NCBI RefSeq assembly: GCF_000590885.1
Contig: NZ_JFHN01000045.1
Coordinates: 186,001-250,000, forward strand
DNA length: 64,000 nucleotides
Origin: Erwinia mallotivora
GTDB taxonomy: Bacteria > Pseudomonadota > Gammaproteobacteria > Enterobacterales > Enterobacteriaceae
Direction: 5' to 3'
The number at the start of each line of letters is the position of its first letter. Position 1 is the stretch's first letter. Both the position numbers and the translations under genes were made by a program. This document shows, piece after piece, positions 5,638-16,583 of the stretch. The notes beneath the pieces are model-generated. The model was not told where the DNA came from. It saw nothing but the letters and a program-made list of their open reading frames with translations, and made no database searches.

Positions 5638-6567
5638 CTATCGCCCACCCGCACCGAGAGCAGCAAGAAAGGCATGTTTAACCGCTTCTGCCTGCACCTC
5701 CAGACACAGCCTCTGCGCCGGACATTCAGCGAACGGATTGAAACGTGAGGCCAGCTGCGTCAGTTGCCGCACGGTCTGGCCGAAAGTAATGCCTTCGCAA
5801 ACGACCCTGACCGGCGATTGCACCGTGGTAAACAGCGTCGGATGATTCAGCCAGGAAATAGTCAGGGTGTCGTGAAGCGCCATTCCGGCGAATCCCTCTT
5901 TTTGCAGGCTGTAGCGCAGATAGCCCTGAGAAATGGCCTCCAGCACCGGCAGATTAAGACTGCGGATATCCTCAGCACCGATCAGCACCTGATGGGTGAC
6001 ATCCAGCGGCAGGATCACCACGGGCCAGGCGAAAGAGAAAACCTGGTCTGCGGCATGGGGATCTTTCCAGATATTAAATTCGCTGTGTGGCGTCACATTA
6101 CCCGCATGACCATGGGTGCCGAATGCGCCACCCATGATGACCACCTCTTTCACCAGCGGAATGATGTCCGGTGCCAGATTAGCTGCCACTGCCAGATTGG
6201 TCAGCGGCCCGATAGCCACCAGGGTAATTTCCCCTGGCTGCGCTCTTACTGTGTCGATAATGAATTCCACGGCGCTTTCTGCCCGGTCGTCGAAAGGATT
6301 CTCCAGCACATCGCCCAACCCGTCGCTGCCGTGGACTTTTGCCGCGCCGGTCACCTGAGAGAGCGCCAGCGGGCGCGAACAACCACGAAATACCGGCACA
6401 TCCAGACCGATCTGCTGTGAAAACAGGCGGGCATTTTTCACCGCCTGACCCACTGCAACGTTGCCAAAAACGGTAGTGATCCCCAAAATATTTTGCGTTT
6501 TTGCCGCATAGGCCAGCGCGAAAGCATCATCCACGCCGATATCAGTATCAAAAATTATCTTTCTCAT
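5638..6567 (-). CDS. Inosine-uridine-preferring nucleoside hydrolase family protein
   Basis: A 309-residue ribonucleoside hydrolase (Rih/IU-NH family) that cleaves the N-glycosidic bond of nucleosides. The calcium-binding signature DTDIGVDDA is at residues 7-15. Further family motifs are TTVFGN, HGSDGLGD and VIMGGAFGTHGHAGNVTPHSEFNIWKDPHAA near residues 145-175, with LHDTLTI near 240. Length is normal for the family (about 310). Which of RihA, B or C it matches cannot be decided by eye. It lies 70 bp downstream of the YgiN-like gene on the same strand. Confidence 0.88.
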   Translation of the reverse strand: MRKIIFDTDIGVDDAFALAYAAKTQNILGITTVFGNVAVGQAVKNARLFSQQIGLDVPVFRGCSRPLALSQVTGAAKVHGSDGLGDVLENPFDDRAESAVEFIIDTVRAQPGEITLVAIGPLTNLAVAANLAPDIIPLVKEVVIMGGAFGTHGHAGNVTPHSEFNIWKDPHAADQVFSFAWPVVILPLDVTHQVLIGAEDIRSLNLPVLEAISQGYLRYSLQKEGFAGMALHDTLTISWLNHPTLFTTVQSPVRVVCEGITFGQTVRQLTQLASRFNPFAECPAQRLCLEVQAEAVKHAFLAALGAGGR

Positions 6568-6637
6568 TGCGTCCTCAAATCCAGCCAGCAGGCATTTCTC
6601 AGAACTAATCCGAACAAAACAGTTTGCCGCGATAAGG

Positions 6638-6946
6638 TTATTTCACGGGTTCCAGCACAAAAATTTTCACCTCCACCACATCGTCTTTAATCAGACTACG
6701 ATGTTGCTCCATATGCTCGGCCTGCTGGTGTTGCTCCAGATGACGCAGGGAATCCCAGTGTTCCAGCATAAAAATTGAGTCAGGCGAGTGCTGCTTCCAG
6801 GGAACCTGGGCTTTGTGATCGATTAGCGGCAGATACCCTCCGCATCCCTCTTCCTGCAATACCGTGGGGATCAACTTTTCAATCGCCTGTAACACGGCAG
6901 TGCGACGGCCAGCTCTGACACAAATCTCGGCAATAACGGTAAGCAT
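6638..6946 (-). CDS. ygiN: YgiN-like quinol/antibiotic-biosynthesis monooxygenase
   Basis: A 102-residue ABM-domain protein (dimeric alpha/beta barrel). It aligns along its whole length with E. coli YgiN, a quinol monooxygenase: MLTVIAEI start, PTVLQEEGC, PDSIFMLEHWDS, HLEQHQQAEHM and the final ILEP-like end. In E. coli ygiN also lies between parE and parC, so the position supports orthology. The neighbouring quinone reductase gene mdaB of E. coli is absent here. Confidence 0.82.
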   Translation of the reverse strand: MLTVIAEICVRAGRRTAVLQAIEKLIPTVLQEEGCGGYLPLIDHKAQVPWKQHSPDSIFMLEHWDSLRHLEQHQQAEHMEQHRSLIKDDVVEVKIFVLEPVK

Positions 6947-7973
6947 ATTGATCCTTTTTGCGTTGATGAAAGTTCGTTTCAGGGGACGGGTGCCTGCGCG
7001 GCTACGGTCACACCGTCATTTTCAGCGCACAGCATCCTGGTCTGCCTGGCTGGGATTGTCGCAGTCAATATAATATTTTGTGTCGAAGATAACCTTTTTG
7101 GGAAAAGAATTTTTCAGCAGTGTCAAAGACATCACATTATCTGACAGACGGCGTAATGTATCATAATCGCTTTATTTCGATCATTATGTTGACTAAGAAT
7201 TCGTGAGCAATATATATATTTGCCATGTATCACTTTTTGTTATGCTGGCGACGTCCGGTTTGAGAAGATATTCACGCGAGAAACTATATTCACCTGAAAG
7301 GATAAACCAGGACTTATCCTAAAAAAATTGCTGTGAAAAAATGGTGATAACTTATTAAGATGAAATATAACAGGCAGGCCCTGGAAGTTTACACCTTAAA
7401 TTTGAAAAAGTAGCCATATACAGAATGGAGCACTAAACACGTCCCTCAACACTGCCACTGTGCAGGATAAATAAAAACTGGATGAGATATTCAGCCTTTG
7501 GGCATGAAATGATATCAGTCATCGTTATAGCAAAATTCATATTATTACTTTCGCATTCAATTGAGGAAGGGGTAATTTATGGTCAGAAAAAAATATATCC
7601 GGAACGCGTTAAAGTAAATTAATTGTCTGAGTGTCTTATTTTTAACAGAGATAAAATAACTTTGGAGCGGAAAGAATTTTTCAGCTACGCCGTTATCAGT
7701 AATCACAGCCGGTCTGCACATATCATCAGTGATTGCTGGCAGAGAGTGAAGCCAGGCAGGCTCTGATTATCCTGTCAGGAAAATGACATTTCCTGGCCAT
7801 CAAATAACAGCCTGTCCCAGCAGGCGTTATTGTCGCAGCCAGTCTGGACACGGACAGCGTGCAGAAACCGGAGCGTACACGGGGTACGTGAGGATTTCGA
7901 GCACTGCCCAGGTTAAGAATGGCAGGTAAAACAGCCCTGATGGGCCAGGCTTTAAGATTAAGGGAGACTGATT
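6947..7973. other. 1-kb gap, AT-rich, mostly without genes
   Basis: No convincing gene. 7060-7700 is strikingly AT-rich compared with the backbone. It contains only weak candidates: a 46-codon frame (7482-7622) and a 12-codon frame at 7579 behind a good AGGAAGGGG ribosome site. The right third holds a palindromic dispersed repeat. The region probably contains the promoter of the following biosynthetic-like operon, but no clear -35/-10 pair stands out. Confidence 0.6.
7803..7950 (-). repeat. Dispersed palindromic intergenic repeat, copy A
   Basis: A 148-bp element whose reverse complement matches the element at 63015-63168 over nearly its full length. Shared blocks include CCCATCAGGGCTG, GAAATCCTCACGTAC, GTGTACGCTCCGGTTTCTG and CTGTCCGTGTCCAGACTGG. 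The core is an imperfect palindrome. One end forms a hairpin (7803-7831, stem AATAAC.GCCTG with CAGGC.GTTATT, one bulge). Any ORF through it looks like an artefact of the repeat. Confidence 0.85.
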
Positions 7974-8753
7974 TTGGGCACACCACAACTCTTTGATCTG
8001 TCAGAGCGGACGGCATTAATCACCGGCGGTTCGCGTGGATTAGGATTACAAATTGCTGAAGCCCTGGGATCGCAGGGGGCGCATGTCATCCTTTCTGCAC
8101 GAAATGCTGATGAATTACGCACGGCGCAGTCGCATCTCGCTTCATTGGGCATCAGTGCCGACTGGATAGTTGCTGATAATACGCGGGATGTCGATATTGA
8201 ACGCCTCGCGCAAGAAGCCATAGCCAAAAAAGGTCACGTCGATATTCTGGTGAATAATGCCGGTACGGCGTTTGGTACGCCGGCAGAAGATCATGCCATT
8301 GACGACTGGGATCGCGTGATGGATTTGAATATCCGTAGCCTGTTTTTATTAACCCGCAATATCGGCAAACACAGCATGATCCCTCGCCGCTACGGAAAAA
8401 TTATTAATGTCTCCTCGCTGGCGGGGTTGCAGGGCAATCTGCCAGGCTGGTTGGAAGGCATTGCCTACAGCACCAGCAAAGGTGCGGTGGTAAATTTTAC
8501 CCGCGCACTGGCCGGTGAGTGGGGCGAATTTAATATTACCGTTAATGCGCTTGCGCCTGGTTTTTTTCCTTCAACCATGACGCGTAATTTACTGAATAAG
8601 GTGGGAGTTGAAACGCTCGCACAAAAATCACCCTTGCGACGAATAGGTGATAACGAAGATTTAAAAGGCGCGGCGATTTTATTCTCCTCAGATGCCAGCA
8701 AATATATCACGGGCCAGACACTCGCCATTGATGGTGGCATCAGTGCGGTATAA
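7974..8753 (+). CDS. SDR-family oxidoreductase, first gene of a putative biosynthetic operon
   Basis: A 259-residue classical short-chain dehydrogenase/reductase. The NAD(P)-binding motif TGGSRGLG is at residues 17-24, NNAG near 90, and the catalytic residues are Ser in NVSS plus Tyr165 and Lys169 (YSTSK). The overall look is of the gluconate 5-dehydrogenase-like subgroup, but the substrate is unknown. It begins with a TTG codon preceded by AGGGAG (7961-7966); no ATG is available near a ribosome site. It is the first of six same-strand genes containing two dioxygenases, a sulfotransferase and an aminotransferase, suggesting oxidation of an alcohol or reduction of a ketone in that pathway. Confidence 0.85.
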   Translation: MGTPQLFDLSERTALITGGSRGLGLQIAEALGSQGAHVILSARNADELRTAQSHLASLGISADWIVADNTRDVDIERLAQEAIAKKGHVDILVNNAGTAFGTPAEDHAIDDWDRVMDLNIRSLFLLTRNIGKHSMIPRRYGKIINVSSLAGLQGNLPGWLEGIAYSTSKGAVVNFTRALAGEWGEFNITVNALAPGFFPSTMTRNLLNKVGVETLAQKSPLRRIGDNEDLKGAAILFSSDASKYITGQTLAIDGGISAV

Positions 8754-8905
8754 TTTCATTTTTATCACTTCCGCTGGCAGATAAACAGGTTTAACTGTCA
8801 AACAGGGATCGCGCCCGGTGACAGGGAGCGGCGATGATCTGAATGGTGATGAAGACACAATAATATTTTTCCAGACGATCGCGTTACCAGACAGAGGTTT
8901 CAACT

Positions 8906-9721
8906 ATGAAGAGTTGCTTTGATGGATGGCAGCCATGCGTTATTAATATCGAAGATAAAGTTGCGGTAATTAAGCACCTTGAGAAATATCGATTTGCTGT
9001 TATTGAGAACGACTGGCAATATGACGATGCTGATTTTCGCTATATCTCTGACCTTTATTTTTTGGGCGATATTTATCAGTCTGCATTTAACCGGGTGGAG
9101 CATGAAGAAGGGGTATTTTCTTCCGGGGTAAATCAGATTGGTGGACTGTCACGCGGCACGCATGTTGTGTTTAACAGTAGCGCACATCTTCCCCTGCACA
9201 CTGATGGTTCTTATATCCCGATTGGCAGCATAAAAACGTCAATTCTTCTTTGTAAACAACACGCCTCCCAGGGGGGAGAAACGGTTCTGTTTGATAGCGT
9301 ATCTGCATTTCAACAACTGCGGATTGATTATCCCGACCTGGCAAACATCTTACTTGAAGAGAATATATTCAGGCGACGTTCAACCGGAACACAATCGGGA
9401 AAGCAGTATTCTCATATCGGGCCGGTTTTTCGTTCCGATGAGAACGGTGGCTTTATTGGCGGATTTACCCTGGATATTACCGCCGACTGGGAATGGTCTT
9501 ATAAAATAAATCCTCGCGTTGCTGATGCCGTTGACTATCTGTCACAGCTGGCAACAGAAGGAAGCCGTTATTTTCTGACATTTCCTCTCTGTCGTGGACA
9601 GGCCCTGATATTTCGTAATGACAAAATTTCACACGGACGTCGTGCCTTTACAGATGACCCGGCTTGTCCAAGAACATTGCTGCGAGGCATGTTTGTCGAT
9701 GTACCGAAACTTAGCGCTTAA
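8906..9721 (+). CDS. TauD/TfdA-family Fe(II)/2-oxoglutarate dioxygenase
   Basis: A 271-residue non-haem iron dioxygenase. The facial triad is visible as His98 and Asp100 (LHTDGSY) and distal His243 (ISHGRRAF), with the 2-oxoglutarate-binding arginine in the TLLRG segment near residue 260. Such enzymes hydroxylate, desaturate or halogenate small molecules. The aspartate in HTD argues for hydroxylation or desaturation rather than halogenation, since halogenases replace it with Ala or Gly. It follows the SDR after 152 bp and precedes the sulfotransferase by 9 bp, so it is probably cotranscribed with it. Ribosome site AGAGG. Confidence 0.85.
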   Translation: MKSCFDGWQPCVINIEDKVAVIKHLEKYRFAVIENDWQYDDADFRYISDLYFLGDIYQSAFNRVEHEEGVFSSGVNQIGGLSRGTHVVFNSSAHLPLHTDGSYIPIGSIKTSILLCKQHASQGGETVLFDSVSAFQQLRIDYPDLANILLEENIFRRRSTGTQSGKQYSHIGPVFRSDENGGFIGGFTLDITADWEWSYKINPRVADAVDYLSQLATEGSRYFLTFPLCRGQALIFRNDKISHGRRAFTDDPACPRTLLRGMFVDVPKLSA

Positions 9722-9730
9722 TAAGGAAAG

Positions 9731-10768
9731 ATGATGCACGAACCCACTTTGGCTGAACAGTGGAACAGCTGGCTTACCTGTCCCCCGGAACGACTTCAGG
9801 CGCAAATGCGTTCAGATTTAGAAAATATAACGGTGGCAGAAAAAACACGCGCGGCGATGCTGGCATTTGTTGATGAATATCGTCGTAAAGGCGAAAACTG
9901 GAGTTCGCAGGGGATCAGAGGAGACGAACTTAAAGCTCCGTTGCTGGAGCTGCAACAGGCCGCCCCGCACTATTTTTCGTTGTTCTGTGAAAAAATTGCC
10001 TTAGCGGAAAAATTCAAATGGGTTGGCGGCAGCGTGGGGGCAGAGGTGCTGGCTGCGCAAACCAGTTACAAGAAATTTGCTGTTGTATCGACGCCCAGAG
10101 CGGGTACGCATTTGATCCGCACGCTGCTGGGTTCTCATCCCAATATTGAAATGCACGGCGAAGCCTTCAATCGCTTTGGCCAGCACTTACTTCCTTACTC
10201 GGTAAGTGATACTCCTGTTGACACCATTATTCAGCGCCATCTTTTCCGGCCCTGGTTTGAATATGTTGAAGCGGTGGGATTTGTGCTTTTTCGCGATCTC
10301 GACACGCAGTGGGGAAAACATTCTGTCTGGCCTGATTTACAGGCGATCCCCGACCTGAAATTGATCCTGCTGGAAAGAAAAAGTCTGTTGCAACAGTTCG
10401 TGTCGTTAAAGAAAAGCCTGCGCGATCAGATATGGTATTTCGCCAGGAACGACAGCCGGGCTGTTTCTGATGAAAAGATTGCAGTTTCTCTTGATGAGTT
10501 GCTGCCATTCATTGATGAAAATACAGAAAACCGCCTTAAATTCACCGAAGCTTTTCAGCATCATCAGATGCTGACCCTTTATTATGAAGATGTGGTTGCC
10601 GCCCCCGAAACCGCTGCCGGTGAAATATTGTCTTTCCTCGGTGTTTCTGAACTCAGACTTTGTGCCGGAACCGGCAGAAAAGAGAGCCGTCCCCTCAGTT
10701 CTGTCATCAGTAATTACCCTCAACTCATCACTACCCTGAAAGGGACAAAATATGAGCCATATTTATAG
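9731..10768 (+). CDS. Sulfotransferase-domain protein
   Basis: 345 residues. A helical N-terminal region (about 1-110) precedes a PAPS-dependent sulfotransferase domain. The 5'-phosphosulfate-binding loop is STPRAGTHLIRTLL (about residues 117-132), followed by HPNIEMHGEAFNRF, typical of the family. LILLERKSLLQQFVSLK is the likely 3'-phosphate-binding segment. The C-terminal segment LTLYYEDVVAAPE then LSFLG is also typical. It would transfer sulfate from PAPS to a hydroxyl or amine of the pathway intermediate, either as a final decoration or to make a leaving group. The gene overlaps the aminotransferase by 17 bp, implying coupled translation. The substrate is unknown. Confidence 0.78.
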   Translation: MMHEPTLAEQWNSWLTCPPERLQAQMRSDLENITVAEKTRAAMLAFVDEYRRKGENWSSQGIRGDELKAPLLELQQAAPHYFSLFCEKIALAEKFKWVGGSVGAEVLAAQTSYKKFAVVSTPRAGTHLIRTLLGSHPNIEMHGEAFNRFGQHLLPYSVSDTPVDTIIQRHLFRPWFEYVEAVGFVLFRDLDTQWGKHSVWPDLQAIPDLKLILLERKSLLQQFVSLKKSLRDQIWYFARNDSRAVSDEKIAVSLDELLPFIDENTENRLKFTEAFQHHQMLTLYYEDVVAAPETAAGEILSFLGVSELRLCAGTGRKESRPLSSVISNYPQLITTLKGTKYEPYL

Positions 10769-11999
10769 TCCACACTGGCCGCCTTATACGGTGCTTACCG
10801 GGAAAGATGAACGACCGCTTATCAGCCACGGACAGGGTATTTATTTATTTGCTGAGAATGGCGAGCGTTATCTTGACGGCATATCGGGATGTTATAACCA
10901 CTGCCTTGGGCACTCTCATCCTGAACTGATTGCCGTGCTGCAACAACAGATCGCCACGCTGATGCATGCCTGCAATATCTATTCAAATACCCAACTGCCC
11001 GGACAGCTTGCTGAGAAAATAGCGTCAAAGCTGACTGATACCGGTCTGCGCAACAGCTTCTTCGTGGGTAGCGGCAGCGAAGGGGTTGAGAGCGCATTAA
11101 AAATGGCCTGGCAATATCAGGTCAACTGCGGGCGTATGCAACGAACCAAAATCATGGCTATCGATGGCGCTTATCATGGCTGCACGCTGGGTGCGATGAT
11201 GGCGACAAGGCGGGCATTTATTAATGAGGGCATTTTACCCTCTTTGCTGGCTGACAATACGATAACCATGCCGCCACCGACGCAGCTGAAGGATCTTGAC
11301 GCCTGGCAAAATGTTTTTGAACAGCAGCAGGACACCATCGCTGCGGTGATTATCGAGCCAATTATGGCGATGGAAGGTACACGCCTGCTGCCCGAAGGTT
11401 TTTTGCAACAACTCTCTGCACTGGCCAACAAATATGATATTCCGCTGATCTGCGATGAAGTCTATTGTGGTATTGGTCGCGCGGGCGCGTTTTGTGAATC
11501 AATTTCGCAGGGCGCCCATCCTGACATTGTTATTTTCAGTAAATGCCTTGGCGGTGGCGTACCTGTTACTGCCGTGATTGCCACAGAAAAAATCGCTGAC
11601 AGCTTTAAAGGACAGGCGCTGCCGTTTTTCCGTCATGGACATACGCAATCCGGTAATTTACTCGGCTGTCGCGCAGGACTGTTTATCCTCGACTATCTGG
11701 ATAAACACCATCTTTATGATGCCGTGGTGGAAAAAGGAAACAGACTTTTACGGTTAATCCGCGATGCTCTGCCGCAAACAGATGGGCTGCTCAGCCTGCA
11801 AGGAAAAGGGCTGATGTTATCAATGACATTTGCATCGCCGATGCTTTGTGGACGTGCACAGGCGGTAATACGGCAGCACGGAGTTATTGTAGGTGCTGCC
11901 GGCTGTTATTTAAAACTGGCACCGGCTTTTACCCTTTCGGATAAAGAGGCAGAGGAATTAGCCCAGCGTATTACCACGGCGCTTGCTTCACTGCCATAA
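10752..11999 (+). CDS. Class-III PLP-dependent aminotransferase
   Basis: A 415-residue aminotransferase of the acetylornithine / 4-aminobutyrate / diaminobutyrate group. Family motifs are the GSGSEGVESALKMAW cofactor-phosphate segment, DGAYHGCTLGAM, the ICDEVYCGIGRAG aspartate motif and SKCLGGG with the PLP lysine at Lys264. HGHTQSGNLLGCRAG follows. It likely moves an amino group onto or off a terminal aldehyde or ketone of the pathway intermediate. The start lies inside the 3' end of the sulfotransferase gene. Exact amino donor and acceptor cannot be read from sequence. Confidence 0.87.
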   Translation: MSHIYSPHWPPYTVLTGKDERPLISHGQGIYLFAENGERYLDGISGCYNHCLGHSHPELIAVLQQQIATLMHACNIYSNTQLPGQLAEKIASKLTDTGLRNSFFVGSGSEGVESALKMAWQYQVNCGRMQRTKIMAIDGAYHGCTLGAMMATRRAFINEGILPSLLADNTITMPPPTQLKDLDAWQNVFEQQQDTIAAVIIEPIMAMEGTRLLPEGFLQQLSALANKYDIPLICDEVYCGIGRAGAFCESISQGAHPDIVIFSKCLGGGVPVTAVIATEKIADSFKGQALPFFRHGHTQSGNLLGCRAGLFILDYLDKHHLYDAVVEKGNRLLRLIRDALPQTDGLLSLQGKGLMLSMTFASPMLCGRAQAVIRQHGVIVGAAGCYLKLAPAFTLSDKEAEELAQRITTALASLP

Positions 12000-12048
12000 G
12001 TTATTTACCGCTGTCATTGTTATTTAAAAATGTTTATGGGAATAAGCT

Positions 12049-12702
12049 ATGTCTGAATACTTCAATCTTGAAAATATTATTCATGGACGCAGGCATGAAT
12101 CGCCTTTCCCCTGGGGGGAATTAACGCAAATCTGGCATAACAGCACCACAGCGTTAACCCTGGCAGAGGAATTTCCGACCGAAGGATTTAATTATCGTGA
12201 ACGTAATGGTGGCTATTTTTATCGCCGTACCCTTATTCCACTTGGACAAGGTCATTTAACCGATCCGGCCACGCTGAGCCATGCCTGGCAGGGAATGTGT
12301 AATGAACTGCTGTCTGACAAATTTATTACCGCGTTATCCACATTTTGCCAGGCACCCCTGGCTGAATTCAAAATGGAAGCGGTCGCGTTTCGTGGTGGAC
12401 GGGATACTCACTATCTGCCACACGTTGATGCCTCTCTGACCCGGGGATTTCGCATGATTATCTATTTCAATGACCAGTGGCAGGAGAGCTGGGGCGGGGC
12501 ATTTCAGATCCTCAACCCCGATAATCACGCGGAAGTCTGTTGTTCAGTCCTTCCTCTTGTTGGCAACGCCAGCGTCATTATTCGCGACGGATATTATGAA
12601 ACCTGGCATCAGGTTGTGCCGTTAACGGGAGAATCGGTCAAAACACGCAATGCACTCAATGTCACCTGGTATGAACCCGGCACCATGAGCACCAGGCAGT
12701 GA
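12049..12702 (+). CDS. Prolyl-hydroxylase-like 2OG-Fe(II) oxygenase
   Basis: 217 residues, second dioxygenase of the operon and from a different superfamily branch than the TauD-type enzyme. The double-stranded beta-helix core shows His125 and Asp127 (HYLPHVDAS), distal His187 (TWHQVVPL) and Arg200 (KTRNALNVTWY) for 2-oxoglutarate. This is the prolyl-4-hydroxylase / SM-20-like pattern, whose members hydroxylate free or carrier-bound amino acids. It lies 49 bp after the aminotransferase. Its stop overlaps the start of the following kinase (TGATG), so the two are translationally coupled. Confidence 0.82.
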   Translation: MSEYFNLENIIHGRRHESPFPWGELTQIWHNSTTALTLAEEFPTEGFNYRERNGGYFYRRTLIPLGQGHLTDPATLSHAWQGMCNELLSDKFITALSTFCQAPLAEFKMEAVAFRGGRDTHYLPHVDASLTRGFRMIIYFNDQWQESWGGAFQILNPDNHAEVCCSVLPLVGNASVIIRDGYYETWHQVVPLTGESVKTRNALNVTWYEPGTMSTRQ

Positions 12703-13244
12703 TGAAGAAGCTCATTTTTCTTTACGGTCCTCCGGCGGTGGGGAAACTCACCGTGGGTGGTTTGCTGGCAGCTCAAACGGCGGCAACGCTGTTCCATAAT
12801 CATCTGACTTACGATCTGGCGGTGGCGCTACTGCCCCCGGACAGTGGCTTTGACTTCACAAAGCAATTTGCCTGTAAAATTCGGCTGTATACTTTGTCGC
12901 TGCTTTTTGCTCAGCGTGATAACGATGTGATCACCACCTTCTGTTATGAAGGAAGTAAAGACGATGAATATATCGCCGCAATAAAGACGATTTGTGAGAA
13001 GCACCGCGTCACGCCCTGTTTCGTGCAGCTTTGCAGCGACGAAGCTCAGCTTCTGAACCGGGTGAAAAACAGCGATCGTGCCCGGTTTGGCAAGGTGAAT
13101 ACCCAGGATGCGCTGCAAAAGATTTTAAGCCAGTATCACTACCGCGACCGTATTGAAGCCGCCTTTCACCTGCGCCTTTCCACTACCGACCTGACCGCTG
13201 AAGAAGTGGTCAGAATCATAAACGACTGGCTTGACGCCCTGTAA
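12702..13244 (+). CDS. P-loop kinase-like ATPase (AAA/shikimate-kinase fold)
   Basis: A 180-residue P-loop protein with a Walker A motif GPPAVGKLT at about residues 7-15 and a small-kinase layout related to shikimate/gluconate kinases and chloramphenicol-phosphotransferase-like proteins. ATG 12702 overlaps the preceding stop as TGATG; a GTG one codon earlier is also possible. Coupling to the dioxygenase suggests it phosphorylates a pathway intermediate or product, perhaps as self-protection. That role is inference, because such stand-alone P-loop kinases also occur outside clusters. Confidence 0.7.
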   Translation: MKKLIFLYGPPAVGKLTVGGLLAAQTAATLFHNHLTYDLAVALLPPDSGFDFTKQFACKIRLYTLSLLFAQRDNDVITTFCYEGSKDDEYIAAIKTICEKHRVTPCFVQLCSDEAQLLNRVKNSDRARFGKVNTQDALQKILSQYHYRDRIEAAFHLRLSTTDLTAEEVVRIINDWLDAL

Positions 13245-13291
13245 TTCTGTCAGCATACCTGTGTCTGGTGCGTGTTTAAGCGGAGCAGGGC

Positions 13292-13311
13292 GCAGAAAGC
13301 TATCTTTCTGC
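13292..13311 (+). other. Perfect 8-bp stem-loop between kinase and pheC
   Basis: GCAGAAAG / CTTTCTGC with a 4-nt loop, 48 bp after the kinase stop. It has no T-run, so it is a weak terminator at best; it may protect the 3' end of the six-gene transcript. Confidence 0.35.
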
Positions 13312-13390
13312 TGACAACATCTTTGCTATCTGTGCAGTAACAGGCGATAAACTCTGTTGCGTGATTTTCTTGAAACAAGAGAGCAACAAC

Positions 13391-14161
13391 ATGATGAAAA
13401 GAGGGTTTATTCTACTGCTGCTGTTGGCAGCGGGGAGCGTCAGTGCGCAATCACATCTCGACCGTGTTCTGCAAAGTAAAGTGCTGACGGTTTGTACCAC
13501 CGGGGATTACCGGCCATACAGCCTGCTGCGGCCAGACGGAGACTATGAGGGGCTTGATATCACCATGGCCCGCTCGCTGGCCAAAAGCCTGGATGCACAA
13601 ATCAAATGGGTGCCCACCACCTGGAAGACCCTGATGCAGGATTTTCTGGCGAAGCAGTGTGATATTGCGGTCGGCGGGATCTCTGTCACCCTGAAACGCC
13701 AGCAGAAGGCATGGTTTGCCAGCTCGCTGGGCAGCGACGGCAAAATTCCGCTGGTGCGCTGTGCCGATAAAGCGAAATACCAGACGGTCAGGCAGCTGAA
13801 CCAGCCTGCTGTACGGCTGATTGAACCGGCGGGCGGCACTAACGAAGCTTTCGCCCATCAGGTACTGCCACAGGCAAATCTGACCCTGTACCACGATAAC
13901 GTCACCATCTTTCAGCAACTGGTGGATAAAAAAGCCGACGTGATGATAACCGATGCTTCGGAAGCGCTTTACCAGCAGAAGCACTACCCGCAGCTTTGTG
14001 CCATTAACCCTCAGCAGCCGATGCAGTATGGCGAAAAAGCCTGGATGTTGCCGCGCGATGACATGAGCTGGAAGCTGTATGTCGATCAGTGGCTGCATCT
14101 CAGTATCGCCACCGGCGAATACCAGCAGACTGCGGGTGAATGGTTGGCTGACGCAAAATAG
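13391..14161 (+). CDS. pheC: Periplasmic cyclohexadienyl (arogenate/prephenate) dehydratase
   Basis: A 256-residue protein that aligns along its length with Pseudomonas aeruginosa PheC: LDRVLQSKVLTVCTTGDYRPYS, LMQDFLAKQCDIAVGGIS, EPAGGTNEAFA, LYHDNVTIFQQLVDKKADVMITDASEA and CAINPQQP. It is a periplasmic-binding-protein-fold enzyme that converts prephenate to phenylpyruvate, or arogenate to phenylalanine, outside the cytoplasm. A signal peptide (residues 1-19, MMKRG then a leucine-rich core, cut at SVSA) supports export. The ATG at 13391 is preferred over an in-frame GTG at 13361 because it starts this signal. It stands alone just upstream of parC. Confidence 0.85.
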   Translation: MMKRGFILLLLLAAGSVSAQSHLDRVLQSKVLTVCTTGDYRPYSLLRPDGDYEGLDITMARSLAKSLDAQIKWVPTTWKTLMQDFLAKQCDIAVGGISVTLKRQQKAWFASSLGSDGKIPLVRCADKAKYQTVRQLNQPAVRLIEPAGGTNEAFAHQVLPQANLTLYHDNVTIFQQLVDKKADVMITDASEALYQQKHYPQLCAINPQQPMQYGEKAWMLPRDDMSWKLYVDQWLHLSIATGEYQQTAGEWLADAK

Positions 14162-14218
14162 GCTTTTACGGCGGGAAACCTGGCTCCCGCCCTCATCCAA
14201 CTTCCTCCACGGTTACCT

Positions 14219-14248
14219 GTGACAGAACCTGTCCGGATAAGGTACTAT
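14219..14248 (+). promoter_or_regulatory. Candidate sigma-70 promoter of parC
   Basis: -35 GTGACA (14219-14224) and -10 TACTAT (14243-14248) with an 18-bp spacer, 60 bp before the parC start. Confidence 0.45.
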
Positions 14249-14309
14249 CCTCGCCAAATCACCCCGATGTGGCATACCGATTGCGCCACGATGTGAGGAA
14301 TCAACAGTA

Positions 14310-16583
14310 ATGAGTGATCTGACGCAGGATGGTGCAGAGCGTCGTGCCCTGCATAAGTTTACCGAAGAGGCCTACCTCAACTATTCCATGTACGTCATCA
14401 TGGATCGTGCGCTGCCCTATATTGGGGATGGTCTGAAACCTGTTCAGCGCCGTATCGTCTATGCGATGTCCGAACTGGGACTGAATAACAGCGCCAAATT
14501 TAAAAAATCGGCGCGTACCGTGGGTGACGTGCTGGGTAAATACCATCCGCACGGCGACAGCGCCTGCTATGAAGCGATGGTGCTGATGGCTCAGCCCTTC
14601 TCCTACCGTTATCCGCTGGTGGACGGGCAGGGCAACTGGGGCGCGCCGGACGATCCGAAATCCTTCGCGGCGATGCGCTATACCGAATCGCGGCTGTCAA
14701 AGTATGCCGAACTGCTGCTCAGCGAGCTAACGCAGGGCACCGTTGATTTTATTCCAAATTTTGACGGGACGATGCAGGAGCCTTCGATCCTCCCTGCACG
14801 TCTGCCAAATATTCTGCTCAACGGCACCACCGGCATTGCGGTGGGAATGGCAACCGATATCCCACCGCATAACCTGCGTGAAGTGGCGCAGGCGGCGATT
14901 AAACTGATCGACTCGCCCAAAGCATCGCTGGATGAGCTGCTGGACATTGTGCAGGGGCCGGATTATCCCACCGAGGCGGAGATTATCACCCCTCGCAATG
15001 AGATCCGTAAAATCTATCAGAGCGGGCGTGGCTCGGTGCGAATGCGTGCCGTATGGAAAAAAGAAGACGGCGACGTGGTGATCACTGCGCTGCCGCATCA
15101 GGTTTCCGGTGCCCGGGTGCTGGAACAGATTGCCACACAGATGCGCAACAAAAAGCTGCCGATGGTGGAAGATCTGCGTGATGAGTCCAACCACGAAAAC
15201 CCGACGCGGCTGGTCATTGTCCCGCGCTCTAACCGCGTGGATGTAGAACAGGTGATGAATCACCTGTTTGCCACGACCGATCTGGAAAAAAGCTACCGCA
15301 TTAACCTCAATATGATCGGCCTGGATAACCGTCCGGCGGTGAAAAATCTGCTGGAAATTATCAGCGAATGGCTGGTTTTCCGCCGTGAAACTGTCCGTCG
15401 TCGCCTGAACTTCCGTCTGGAAAAGGTGCTGAAACGCCTGCACATTCTGGAAGGTTTGCTGATTGCGTTTCTTAACATTGATGAAGTTATTCATATCATC
15501 CGCACTGAGGATGAGCCGAAGCCGCAACTGATGGCGCGTTTCGGTATCAGCGAAACCCAGGCCGAAGCGATCCTTGAACTGAAATTACGTCATCTTGCCA
15601 GACTGGAAGAGATGAAAATTCGCGGTGAGCAGGATGAACTGGCGAAAGAGCGCGATAAATTGCAGGAGATCCTCGCCTCTGAACGCAAGATGAACACCCT
15701 GCTGAAGAAAGAAATTCAGGCTGACAGCGATACTTATGGGGATGCCCGCCGCTCGCCACTGCGCGAGCGTGAAGAAGCGAAAGCGATCAGCGAAAGCGAA
15801 CTGGTGCCGTCCGAACCGGTGACCATTGTGCTGTCTCAAATGGGCTGGGTGCGCAGTGCCAGGGGCCATGATATTGATCCGGTCGGGCTGAGTTATAAGG
15901 CCGGAGACAATTACCGGGCTGCGGCGCGCGGTAAGAGTAACCAGCCGGTGGTCTTTATTGACTCTACCGGACGCAGCTATGCGTTAGACCCGGTCACTCT
16001 GCCGTCGGCGCGTGGTCAGGGTGAACCCCTGACCGGCAAACTCACGCCGCCACCGGGCGCGATAATGGAACAGGTGTTGATGGAGGCTGACGATCAACGG
16101 CTGCTGATGGCCTCGGATGCGGGTTATGGCTTTGTCTGTACCTTTAACGATCTGGTTTCCCGTAACCGCGCCGGAAAAGCCCTGTTAAATCTGCCTGAAA
16201 ATGCCAGAGTGATGACGCCACTGGCGATTCATCACGATGACGATCTGCTGCTGGCGATTACCGCTGCCGGAAGAATGCTGCTGTTCCCGGTGGCGGATTT
16301 GCCACAGCTGAGCAAGGGCAAAGGCAACAAGATCGTCTCCATTCCTTCGGCGCAGGCGGCGTCTGGTGAAGATAAGCTGAGCTGGCTGTTGCTGCTCTCG
16401 CCGCAAACGGCGATTACTCTGCATGTTGGTAAACGCAAACTCACTCTGCGCCCGGAAGATCTTCAGAAGTTCCGTGCTGAGCGGGGGCGGCGGGGAACGC
16501 TACTGCCACGAGGACTGCAACGGATAGACCGTGTTGAGGTGGATATGCCGGCGCGTGAACAGACGGGCGACGGTGACGCATAA
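14310..16583 (+). CDS. parC: DNA topoisomerase IV subunit A (ParC)
   Basis: A 757-residue breakage-reunion subunit (E. coli 752; four extra residues near the N-terminus). The winged-helix core holds the active-site tyrosine, Tyr124 (MRYTESR; Tyr120 in E. coli). The quinolone-resistance region reads [10 protein letters not shown], with Ser84 and Glu88 (E. coli Ser80/Glu84) in the wild-type state. The C-terminal half contains the beta-pinwheel that binds DNA. parC-plsC-ftsP order is as in E. coli. Confidence 0.98.

What the first reader, a model, noticed from the sequence alone, without database searches (positions are those of the whole stretch)
7974..13244. Undescribed six-gene biosynthetic-like operon: SDR, TauD dioxygenase, sulfotransferase, class-III aminotransferase, prolyl-hydroxylase-like dioxygenase, P-loop kinase
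Six co-directional genes, three of the five junctions within 10 bp or overlapping, combine two unrelated 2-oxoglutarate dioxygenases with PAPS-sulfotransfer, transamination, redox and a kinase. All active-site residues are intact. There is no NRPS, PKS or transporter, so the product is probably a modified amino acid or amine. A hydroxylate, sulfate, then eliminate or displace route to an unusual amino acid is one hypothesis. It sits in an otherwise conserved parE-parC interval behind an AT-rich gap and a dispersed repeat, as an acquired island would.
Basis: partly seen in the sequence, partly recalled or inferred. Interest (0 to 1): 0.78.

Follow-up and report, generated by a model that had tools for sequence, protein, structure and literature searches.

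The report
Mobile six-gene cassette of plant pathogens
An Erwinia-type plant bacterium carries a set of six enzyme genes whose five-gene core travels as a block among unrelated plant pathogens; a version is already known in Pseudomonas syringae, where it aids growth in beans, but nobody yet knows what molecule it makes.

Summary
In detail: six co-directional, intact genes lie at 7974-13244. "Undescribed" is wrong for five of them. TauD, sulfotransferase, class-III aminotransferase, 2OG oxygenase and P-loop kinase keep the same order in 19 of 19 related loci (Pectobacterium, Erwinia psidii, Xanthomonas, Paracidovorax, Pseudomonas plasmids). They correspond to PSPPH_A0110-A0106, the avrD-linked HrpL operon of Mucyn et al. 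2014, where deleting the oxygenase gene slightly lowers growth in bean (PMC3879358, passages). The window's genus is Erwinia. Its copy has no avrD or linked phosphatase and begins with an SDR seen in 9 of 9 enteric carriers and 0 of 12 others. Four of four Erwinia relatives fetched have an empty site here, three of them with mdaB, which this genome lacks. Low dN/dS marks all six genes. Best explanation: a horizontally spread pathway to a soluble, hydroxylated, sulfated or phosphorylated small molecule used in plants. Product unknown, transcription unmeasured, no hrp box found here.

The parts
7974..8753 (+). SDR oxidoreductase, 259 aa, TTG start; first gene of the cassette, seen in enteric carriers only
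   Evidence: PF13561 1.4e-51; NF006070 386.5 bits, cut-off 279, 'gluconate 5-dehydrogenase' subfamily; adjacent in 9 of 9 enteric carriers, 0 of 12 others within the stretch held
8906..9721 (+). TauD-type Fe(II)/2OG oxygenase, 271 aa
   Evidence: PF02668 1.1e-25; H98, D100, H243 invariant in 11; nearest solved relatives DfmD 2.4e-7 and gamma-butyrobetaine dioxygenase 3.2e-4
9731..10768 (+). PAPS-type sulfotransferase, 345 aa, with about 115 residues before the phosphosulfate loop
   Evidence: PF13469 9.7e-12; STPRxGTH loop invariant in 11; NodH-type sulfotransferase 9vki 1.5e-7
10752..11999 (+). class-III PLP aminotransferase, 415 aa; overlaps the sulfotransferase gene by 17 bases
   Evidence: PF00202 1.4e-78; K264 and DEVYCG-x-GR invariant in 11; K388 invariant where the aligned acetylornithine aminotransferases 2eh6 and 2ord have Arg, and 7qzj and 6zhk have Met and Ile
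12049..12702 (+). prolyl-hydroxylase-type Fe(II)/2OG oxygenase, 217 aa; by position the counterpart of PSPPH_A0107
   Evidence: PF13640 7.8e-9; H125, D127, H187, R200 invariant in 11; mutant phenotype of PSPPH_A0107 in PMC3879358
12699..13244 (+). small P-loop kinase, 181 aa, GTG 12699 or ATG 12702 start; overlaps the oxygenase gene by 4 bases
   Evidence: no Pfam/NCBIfam match; GPPAVGKLT invariant in 11; model pLDDT 87.5, gluconate kinase Z 17.0, tied with other P-loop kinases
6953..13315 (.). segment absent from E. psidii at this site (774 bases holding mdaB, name recalled, lie there instead); includes an AT-rich 1-kb leader of unknown origin
   Evidence: blastn end points against L039; ORF in L039; no match in G000
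7870..7896 (+). copy of a dispersed repeat; its 24-base pattern (four free positions) occurs 6 times in the genome
6638..6946 (-). left flanking gene, ABM-domain protein (ygiN-like; name recalled)
   Evidence: PF03992 7.6e-12; beside the empty site in the four relatives fetched
13391..14161 (+). right flanking gene, solute-binding protein, followed by parC
   Evidence: PF00497 5.7e-22; parC TIGR01062 1332.5 bits; conserved in the four relatives fetched

Best explanation
A horizontally acquired biosynthetic cassette. Five core enzymes (two Fe(II)/2OG oxygenases, a PAPS sulfotransferase, a class-III aminotransferase and a small-molecule kinase) convert a free, non-carrier-bound precursor into a hydroxylated, aminated, sulfated or phosphorylated soluble metabolite that helps the bacterium in plant tissue. 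Enteric versions add an SDR; P. syringae versions add a phosphatase and sit behind avrD. Shown: gene identity and order, low dN/dS, patchy spread, absence from the same site in four relatives, and (by others, in P. savastanoi pv. phaseolicola) HrpL-dependent co-expression and slightly reduced growth in bean of the oxygenase mutant. Inferred: that the product is a small molecule, the order of steps, its use by this Erwinia, and that the kinase acts on an intermediate or protects the producer.
For: Same five-gene order in 19 of 19 loci from five genera known for plant pathogens (pathogen status recalled). NG86 dN/dS 0.03-0.15 for all six genes in two Pectobacterium pairs and 0.06-0.12 for the window against P. 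zantedeschiae, no internal stops. Patchy: 3 of 37 Erwinia, own included, 6 of 35 Xanthomonas, 2 of 295 sampled family members, own included. Empty site in the four Erwinia relatives fetched. Each of the six proteins is closer to the four Pectobacterium copies compared than to that of E. psidii (sulfotransferase 69-70 against 64%), whereas ParC is 94% to E. psidii and 82-83% to Pectobacterium. Paracidovorax groups with X. albilineans and strain GPE 39 at 99/97 support. Mutant and expression data for the P. savastanoi copy: PMC3879358 (passages).
Against: No product, substrate or transporter is known. No short ORF was recognised as shared across groups upstream of TauD (by inspection), so nothing there hints at a precursor either way. 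No hrp box within 2 mismatches on the + strand at window 6950-9000. HrcV is over the cut-off in 14 of 17 carriers, so the link with type III secretion is imperfect. A tree holding the three Erwinia copies together is not rejected (p-AU 0.0546), so separate acquisition within Erwinia rests on identities and sites; and against the copy of Erwinia G342 one of 24 identities goes the other way (aminotransferase, P. fontis 72.7, G342 73.2). Broken copies exist. The SDR could be a passenger. One Pseudomonas record with the sulfotransferase is labelled a soil isolate. An earlier study cited by Mucyn et al. saw no growth defect for an avrD replacement.
Confidence: 0.6

Rival explanations
1. The enzymes inactivate or remodel a plant metabolite (defence compound or hormone) by hydroxylation, transamination, sulfation and phosphorylation, rather than building a product of their own.
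For: No carrier protein, adenylation enzyme or exporter among the six genes; sulfation and phosphorylation are common inactivating steps (general knowledge); the tunicamycin-resistance protein 2vli is among the kinase's fold neighbours (Z 15.9).
Against: Five linked steps are more than an inactivation usually needs (general knowledge); the authors of the P. syringae study favour synthesis. The kinase fold match does not discriminate: many rows are tied within 1 Z of the top.
Confidence: 0.2
2. The cassette modifies a macromolecule (lipopolysaccharide, peptide or protein): the sulfotransferase is NodH-like and one oxygenase is prolyl-hydroxylase-like.
For: NodH-type sulfotransferase 9vki is the best solved relative (1.5e-7), and tyrosylprotein sulfotransferases also match (7.5e-4 and weaker); weak hit of the oxygenase to the peptide oxygenase YhhC (5.3e-4, far under its cut-off).
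Against: No precursor-peptide ORF was recognised as shared across groups upstream of TauD (14 loci, by inspection); the aminotransferase-oxygenase gap is short (31-81 bases as printed for 12 loci); an aminotransferase and a small-molecule-type kinase are constant members.
Confidence: 0.1
3. One reading: hydroxylation, sulfation, then elimination or displacement of sulfate to give an unusual free amino acid or amine.
For: The CurM sulfotransferase (its decarboxylating elimination is recalled) is a distant sequence relative (1.2e-4); aminotransferase and two hydroxylases are present.
Against: The CurM match is weaker than the NodH match and covers only profile positions 267-309; no enzyme specific for elimination is seen; no metabolite data.
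Confidence: 0.1

Closest known systems
avrD-linked HrpL operon PSPPH_A0112-A0106 of P. savastanoi pv. phaseolicola 1448A (Mucyn et al. 2014, PMC3879358)
   Same: Five counterparts in the same order: TauD, sulfotransferase, aminotransferase, 2OG oxygenase, kinase; 45-62% identity. The record bears newer locus tags; A0110-A0106 were matched by order and product.
   Different: Window copy is chromosomal, has no avrD (none in the genome by tblastn), no linked phosphatase, no hrp box within 2 mismatches, and an SDR in front.
Cassette of Pectobacterium (L003-L007) and Erwinia psidii (L016)
   Same: All six genes including the SDR, same order; 53-86% identity for L003, L004, L006, L007 and L016.
   Different: Different surroundings; the window copy lies between the ABM gene and the solute-binding gene, that of E. 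psidii (and of Erwinia G342) between ppd-like genes and thyA (gene names recalled from ORF starts).
Cassette of Xanthomonas and Paracidovorax (L008-L015, L017)
   Same: Five core genes in the same order; 49-62% identity to the window.
   Different: No SDR within the stretch held, no avrD in the genomes.

Membership tests
Five-gene TauD-sulfotransferase-aminotransferase-2OG-kinase cassette (PSPPH_A0110-A0106 type) | Five homologous genes, same order and strand | tested here: met
Five-gene TauD-sulfotransferase-aminotransferase-2OG-kinase cassette (PSPPH_A0110-A0106 type) | Metal, phosphosulfate, PLP and P-loop residues intact | tested here: met
   (motifs recalled; invariance computed over 11 rows)
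Five-gene TauD-sulfotransferase-aminotransferase-2OG-kinase cassette (PSPPH_A0110-A0106 type) | Contribution to growth in plants | not testable with these tools
   reported for PSPPH_A0107 only among the core genes (passages)
avrD operon (syringolide-linked) | avrD gene in the operon or genome | tested here: not met
   0 of 17 non-Pseudomonas carrier genomes, the window's included, at E 1e-5; the control plasmid is found
avrD operon (syringolide-linked) | Linked histidine phosphatase gene upstream of TauD | tested here: not met
   an SDR stands there instead; among 20 related loci the phosphatase query hit only the three plasmid loci
avrD operon (syringolide-linked) | HrpL box upstream | tested here: inconclusive
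   exact box before avrD in 3 of 3 plasmid loci; none within 2 mismatches at window 6950-9000; consensus recalled, not fitted to Erwinia
RiPP pathway (sulfated or cyclophane peptide) | Conserved short precursor ORF | tested here: inconclusive
   none recognised by inspection of short ORFs upstream of TauD in 14 loci; more distant precursors not sought
Gluconate kinase family | Family profile match, substrate residues and activity | tested here: inconclusive
   fold match Z 17.0 tied with other P-loop kinases; no family profile hit

The most novel reading that the evidence does not exclude
The cassette encodes a not yet described class of plant-active metabolite made without NRPS or PKS machinery by a 2OG, PAPS, PLP and ATP route, shared by at least five families of plant-associated bacteria and independent of avrD, with the SDR giving the enteric lineages a chemical variant.
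Probability: 0.35. Interest if true: 0.7.

Novelty: new member of a known kind. Interest (0 to 1): 0.45.

Why it matters
One small cassette, found at different chromosomal and plasmid sites in Erwinia, Pectobacterium, Xanthomonas, Paracidovorax and Pseudomonas, and reported to matter for virulence in one of them, points to a shared metabolite that, in the papers seen here, still has no structure. The avrD-free copies (already noted by Mucyn et al. for other genera, confirmed here in 17 genomes) separate the core from syringolides, and its small size makes the product question testable.

Tried and rejected
Rejected: that the operon makes syringolides (no avrD in the genome; Mucyn et al. also argue against it). 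Rejected: 'AAA family ATPase', the label of the kinase in plasmid records; the model is a small-molecule-type P-loop kinase. Its fold does not tell gluconate from APS, adenylate or other kinases, so an APS-kinase role supplying PAPS is neither shown nor excluded.

Led nowhere: HrpX-type (PIP) boxes (consensus recalled) were found upstream in 2 of 9 Xanthomonas/Paracidovorax loci only, at one shared place, scanning one strand of up to 3.5 kb. hrp boxes in enteric relatives: of seven scanned from 900 bases before to 950 after the SDR start, L006 has a one-mismatch site 604 bases upstream, L004, L005 and L007 have two-mismatch sites, and L003, L016 and L037 have none; L018 has a relaxed-pattern site 614 bases upstream; not pursued. 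Rfam: no match in 6500-14400. PHROGs: no match for the 3 of 6 proteins submitted. Sulfotransferase model: poor (pLDDT 70.7, pTM 0.54) and not searched. PF05655 in the own genome was uninformative, because its control genomes did not ring; one search replaced it. Wide surveys gave no new strong carrier: phylum sample 3 of 398, two of them already known and one a partial match of 76.5 bits; family of Paracidovorax 2 of 399, both already known. Literature: ten searches. Searches returned no paper; two returned one and two papers that by title are unrelated (listing only). PMC4544800 and PMC2745422 were seen in listings only.
Full report
What is there. Six + strand ORFs fill 7974-13244 with the stated functions. 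Three of five junctions overlap or are within 10 bp; the SDR-TauD gap (152 bp) and the aminotransferase-oxygenase gap (49 bp) hold no promoter-like or terminator-like site, although the region as a whole has more terminator-like sites (16) than shuffles (6.4), most of them inside genes. The sixth protein matches no Pfam or NCBIfam model, but its AlphaFold model (pLDDT 87.5, pTM 0.84) is a small P-loop kinase: gluconate kinase 1ko5 Z 17.0, rmsd 3.1, 166 residues, with many other kinases tied within 1 Z.

Whose genome. The window lies on a 427-kb contig of a 4.64-Mb, 75-contig assembly. G325, listed as same genus, has a contig of 627,986 bases that agrees with the E. psidii record NZ_RHHM01000001.1 in length and in the place of the sulfotransferase. 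ParC is 94% identical to E. psidii, 90-91% to three other same-genus genomes and 82-83% to three Pectobacterium genomes. So the genus is Erwinia; no call names the species.

What it is related to. A scan with the sulfotransferase gave 16 loci, from Pectobacterium, Erwinia, Xanthomonas or Paracidovorax; tblastn of plasmids gave 19 records, 14 covering at least 80% of the query, all 14 Pseudomonas. In 19 of 19 loci longer than 7 kb (L003-L021) the five core genes follow in the same order and strand; L018 is broken in several genes. Another Erwinia (G342, L037) has all six, with the 2OG gene broken. In the three plasmid records opened the cassette stands behind avrD and a histidine phosphatase gene and before a carbon storage regulator gene. 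By order and product these are PSPPH_A0110-A0106 of Mucyn et al. 2014 (PMC3879358; passages read), who reported HrpL-dependent co-transcription with avrD, slightly reduced growth in bean of avrD and PSPPH_A0107 deletion mutants (an earlier avrD replacement had shown none), and similar genes in Xanthomonas, Acidovorax, Pectobacterium and Ralstonia, of which only one Ralstonia also has an avrD-like gene. They speculated about a secondary metabolite and judged the operon not required for syringolides. Two further papers only list one or more of these genes in tables (PMC2856684, PMC3639832; passages read).

What differs in the window. avrD is not found in this genome nor in the 16 other non-Pseudomonas carrier genomes searched, while the control plasmid rings. 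The SDR precedes TauD in 9 of 9 enteric carriers (window, L003-L007, L016, L018, L037) and in 0 of 12 others within the stretch held (L008-L015, L017, L019-L021). An exact hrp box stands before avrD in 3 of 3 plasmid loci. None within two mismatches lies on the + strand at window 6950-9000; among seven enteric relatives only L006 has a one-mismatch site, 604 bases upstream, and L004, L005 and L007 have two-mismatch sites. So HrpL control is not shown here. HrcV is over its cut-off in 14 of 17 carrier genomes, twice in the window's own; Pectobacterium fontis, X. maliensis and X. sp. GPE 39 show only a match below the cut-off. The cassette is therefore not strictly tied to type III secretion.

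How it arrived. In E. psidii and three other Erwinia, the four relatives fetched, the cassette is missing between the same two flanking genes. Window 6953-13315 corresponds to 774 bases in E. psidii that hold an mdaB gene (name recalled). mdaB is present at this site in E. psidii, G119 and G222, and not found in G293 nor in the window's genome. E. psidii and G342 carry the cassette at another, shared site. Each of the six proteins is closer to the four Pectobacterium copies compared than to that of E. psidii, opposite to ParC; against G342, 23 of 24 identities go the same way. In a concatenated tree of five proteins the window copy's place among the enteric copies is open, and a clade of the three Erwinia copies is not rejected (p-AU 0.0546). 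Paracidovorax groups with X. albilineans and GPE 39, apart from the other Xanthomonas, at 99/97, best read as transfer between families. GC3 of the six genes (0.39-0.59) is below that of four neighbours (0.63-0.66). The AT-rich leader matches none of seven other enteric upstream regions (blastn, E 0.01) and remains unexplained, as does its dispersed repeat (6 places).

Is it working. NG86 dN/dS is 0.03-0.15 for each of six genes in two Pectobacterium pairs and 0.06-0.12 for the window against P. zantedeschiae, with no internal stops; synonymous sites are near saturation in the latter, and two of six ratios against E. psidii could not be computed. HxD...H residues of both oxygenases, the phosphosulfate loop, the PLP lysine and the P-loop are invariant in 11 homologues (motif names recalled). 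The aminotransferase has an invariant Lys (K388) where the aligned acetylornithine aminotransferases 2eh6 and 2ord have Arg; the two other chains printed, 7qzj and 6zhk, have Met and Ile. That this Arg binds the substrate carboxylate is recalled, and a different substrate is inference.

Mechanism. I commit to a soluble pathway acting on a free precursor: hydroxylation by two 2OG enzymes, transamination, sulfation from PAPS and phosphorylation, with SDR redox chemistry in enterics. The order, substrate and product are unknown. No short ORF was recognised as shared across groups upstream of TauD (14 loci, by inspection), which weakens but does not exclude a peptide substrate. The nearest solved sulfotransferase is NodH-type (1.5e-7), with CurM's behind it (1.2e-4), so a sulfate-leaving-group step is possible but unsupported.

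Verdict. Real, intact, mobile and selected; its core was described in 2014; product unknown in the papers seen. Not in the passages I read, and so perhaps new: the Erwinia copies and their two sites, the enteric-only SDR as a sixth gene, and the replacement of mdaB. That the core lives without avrD outside Pseudomonas was already noted by Mucyn et al.; here it is confirmed in 17 of 17 genomes searched.

Noticed in passing
L037 10383-10769 (Erwinia G342): The cassette of this Erwinia sits at the same site as that of E. psidii, and its 2OG oxygenase gene is broken (128-aa ORF, two tblastn pieces).
   Followed up: partly
G1140:C1:3746301-3747337 (Xanthomonas): The sulfotransferase gene is in two pieces.
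   Followed up: no
L018: Pectobacterium sp. PL152 cassette is broken in several genes, but HrcV/FlhA-type genes in the same genome are also in many pieces, so a poor assembly is likely.
   Followed up: partly
L017 5310-6083 and 11931-12704: In X. arboricola pv. juglandis the cassette lies between two same-strand ORFs of 257 aa with identical first 60 residues that look like an IS transposase (by eye), as in a composite transposon.
   Followed up: no
L044 8001-9712: A P. avellanae plasmid has only the 2OG oxygenase, kinase and carbon-storage-regulator tail of the cassette annotated, near a recombinase gene.
   Followed up: no
window 6953-7973: AT-rich 1-kb leader without a recognised gene, unlike seven other enteric upstream regions of the cassette.
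   Followed up: partly
window genome G000: mdaB (name recalled), present beside the ABM gene in three Erwinia relatives, is not found in this genome; G293 lacks it too.
   Followed up: yes
G000:C44:30869-32905 and G000:C26:15446-17452: Two HrcV genes over the family cut-off, so the genome probably has two type III secretion systems.
   Followed up: no
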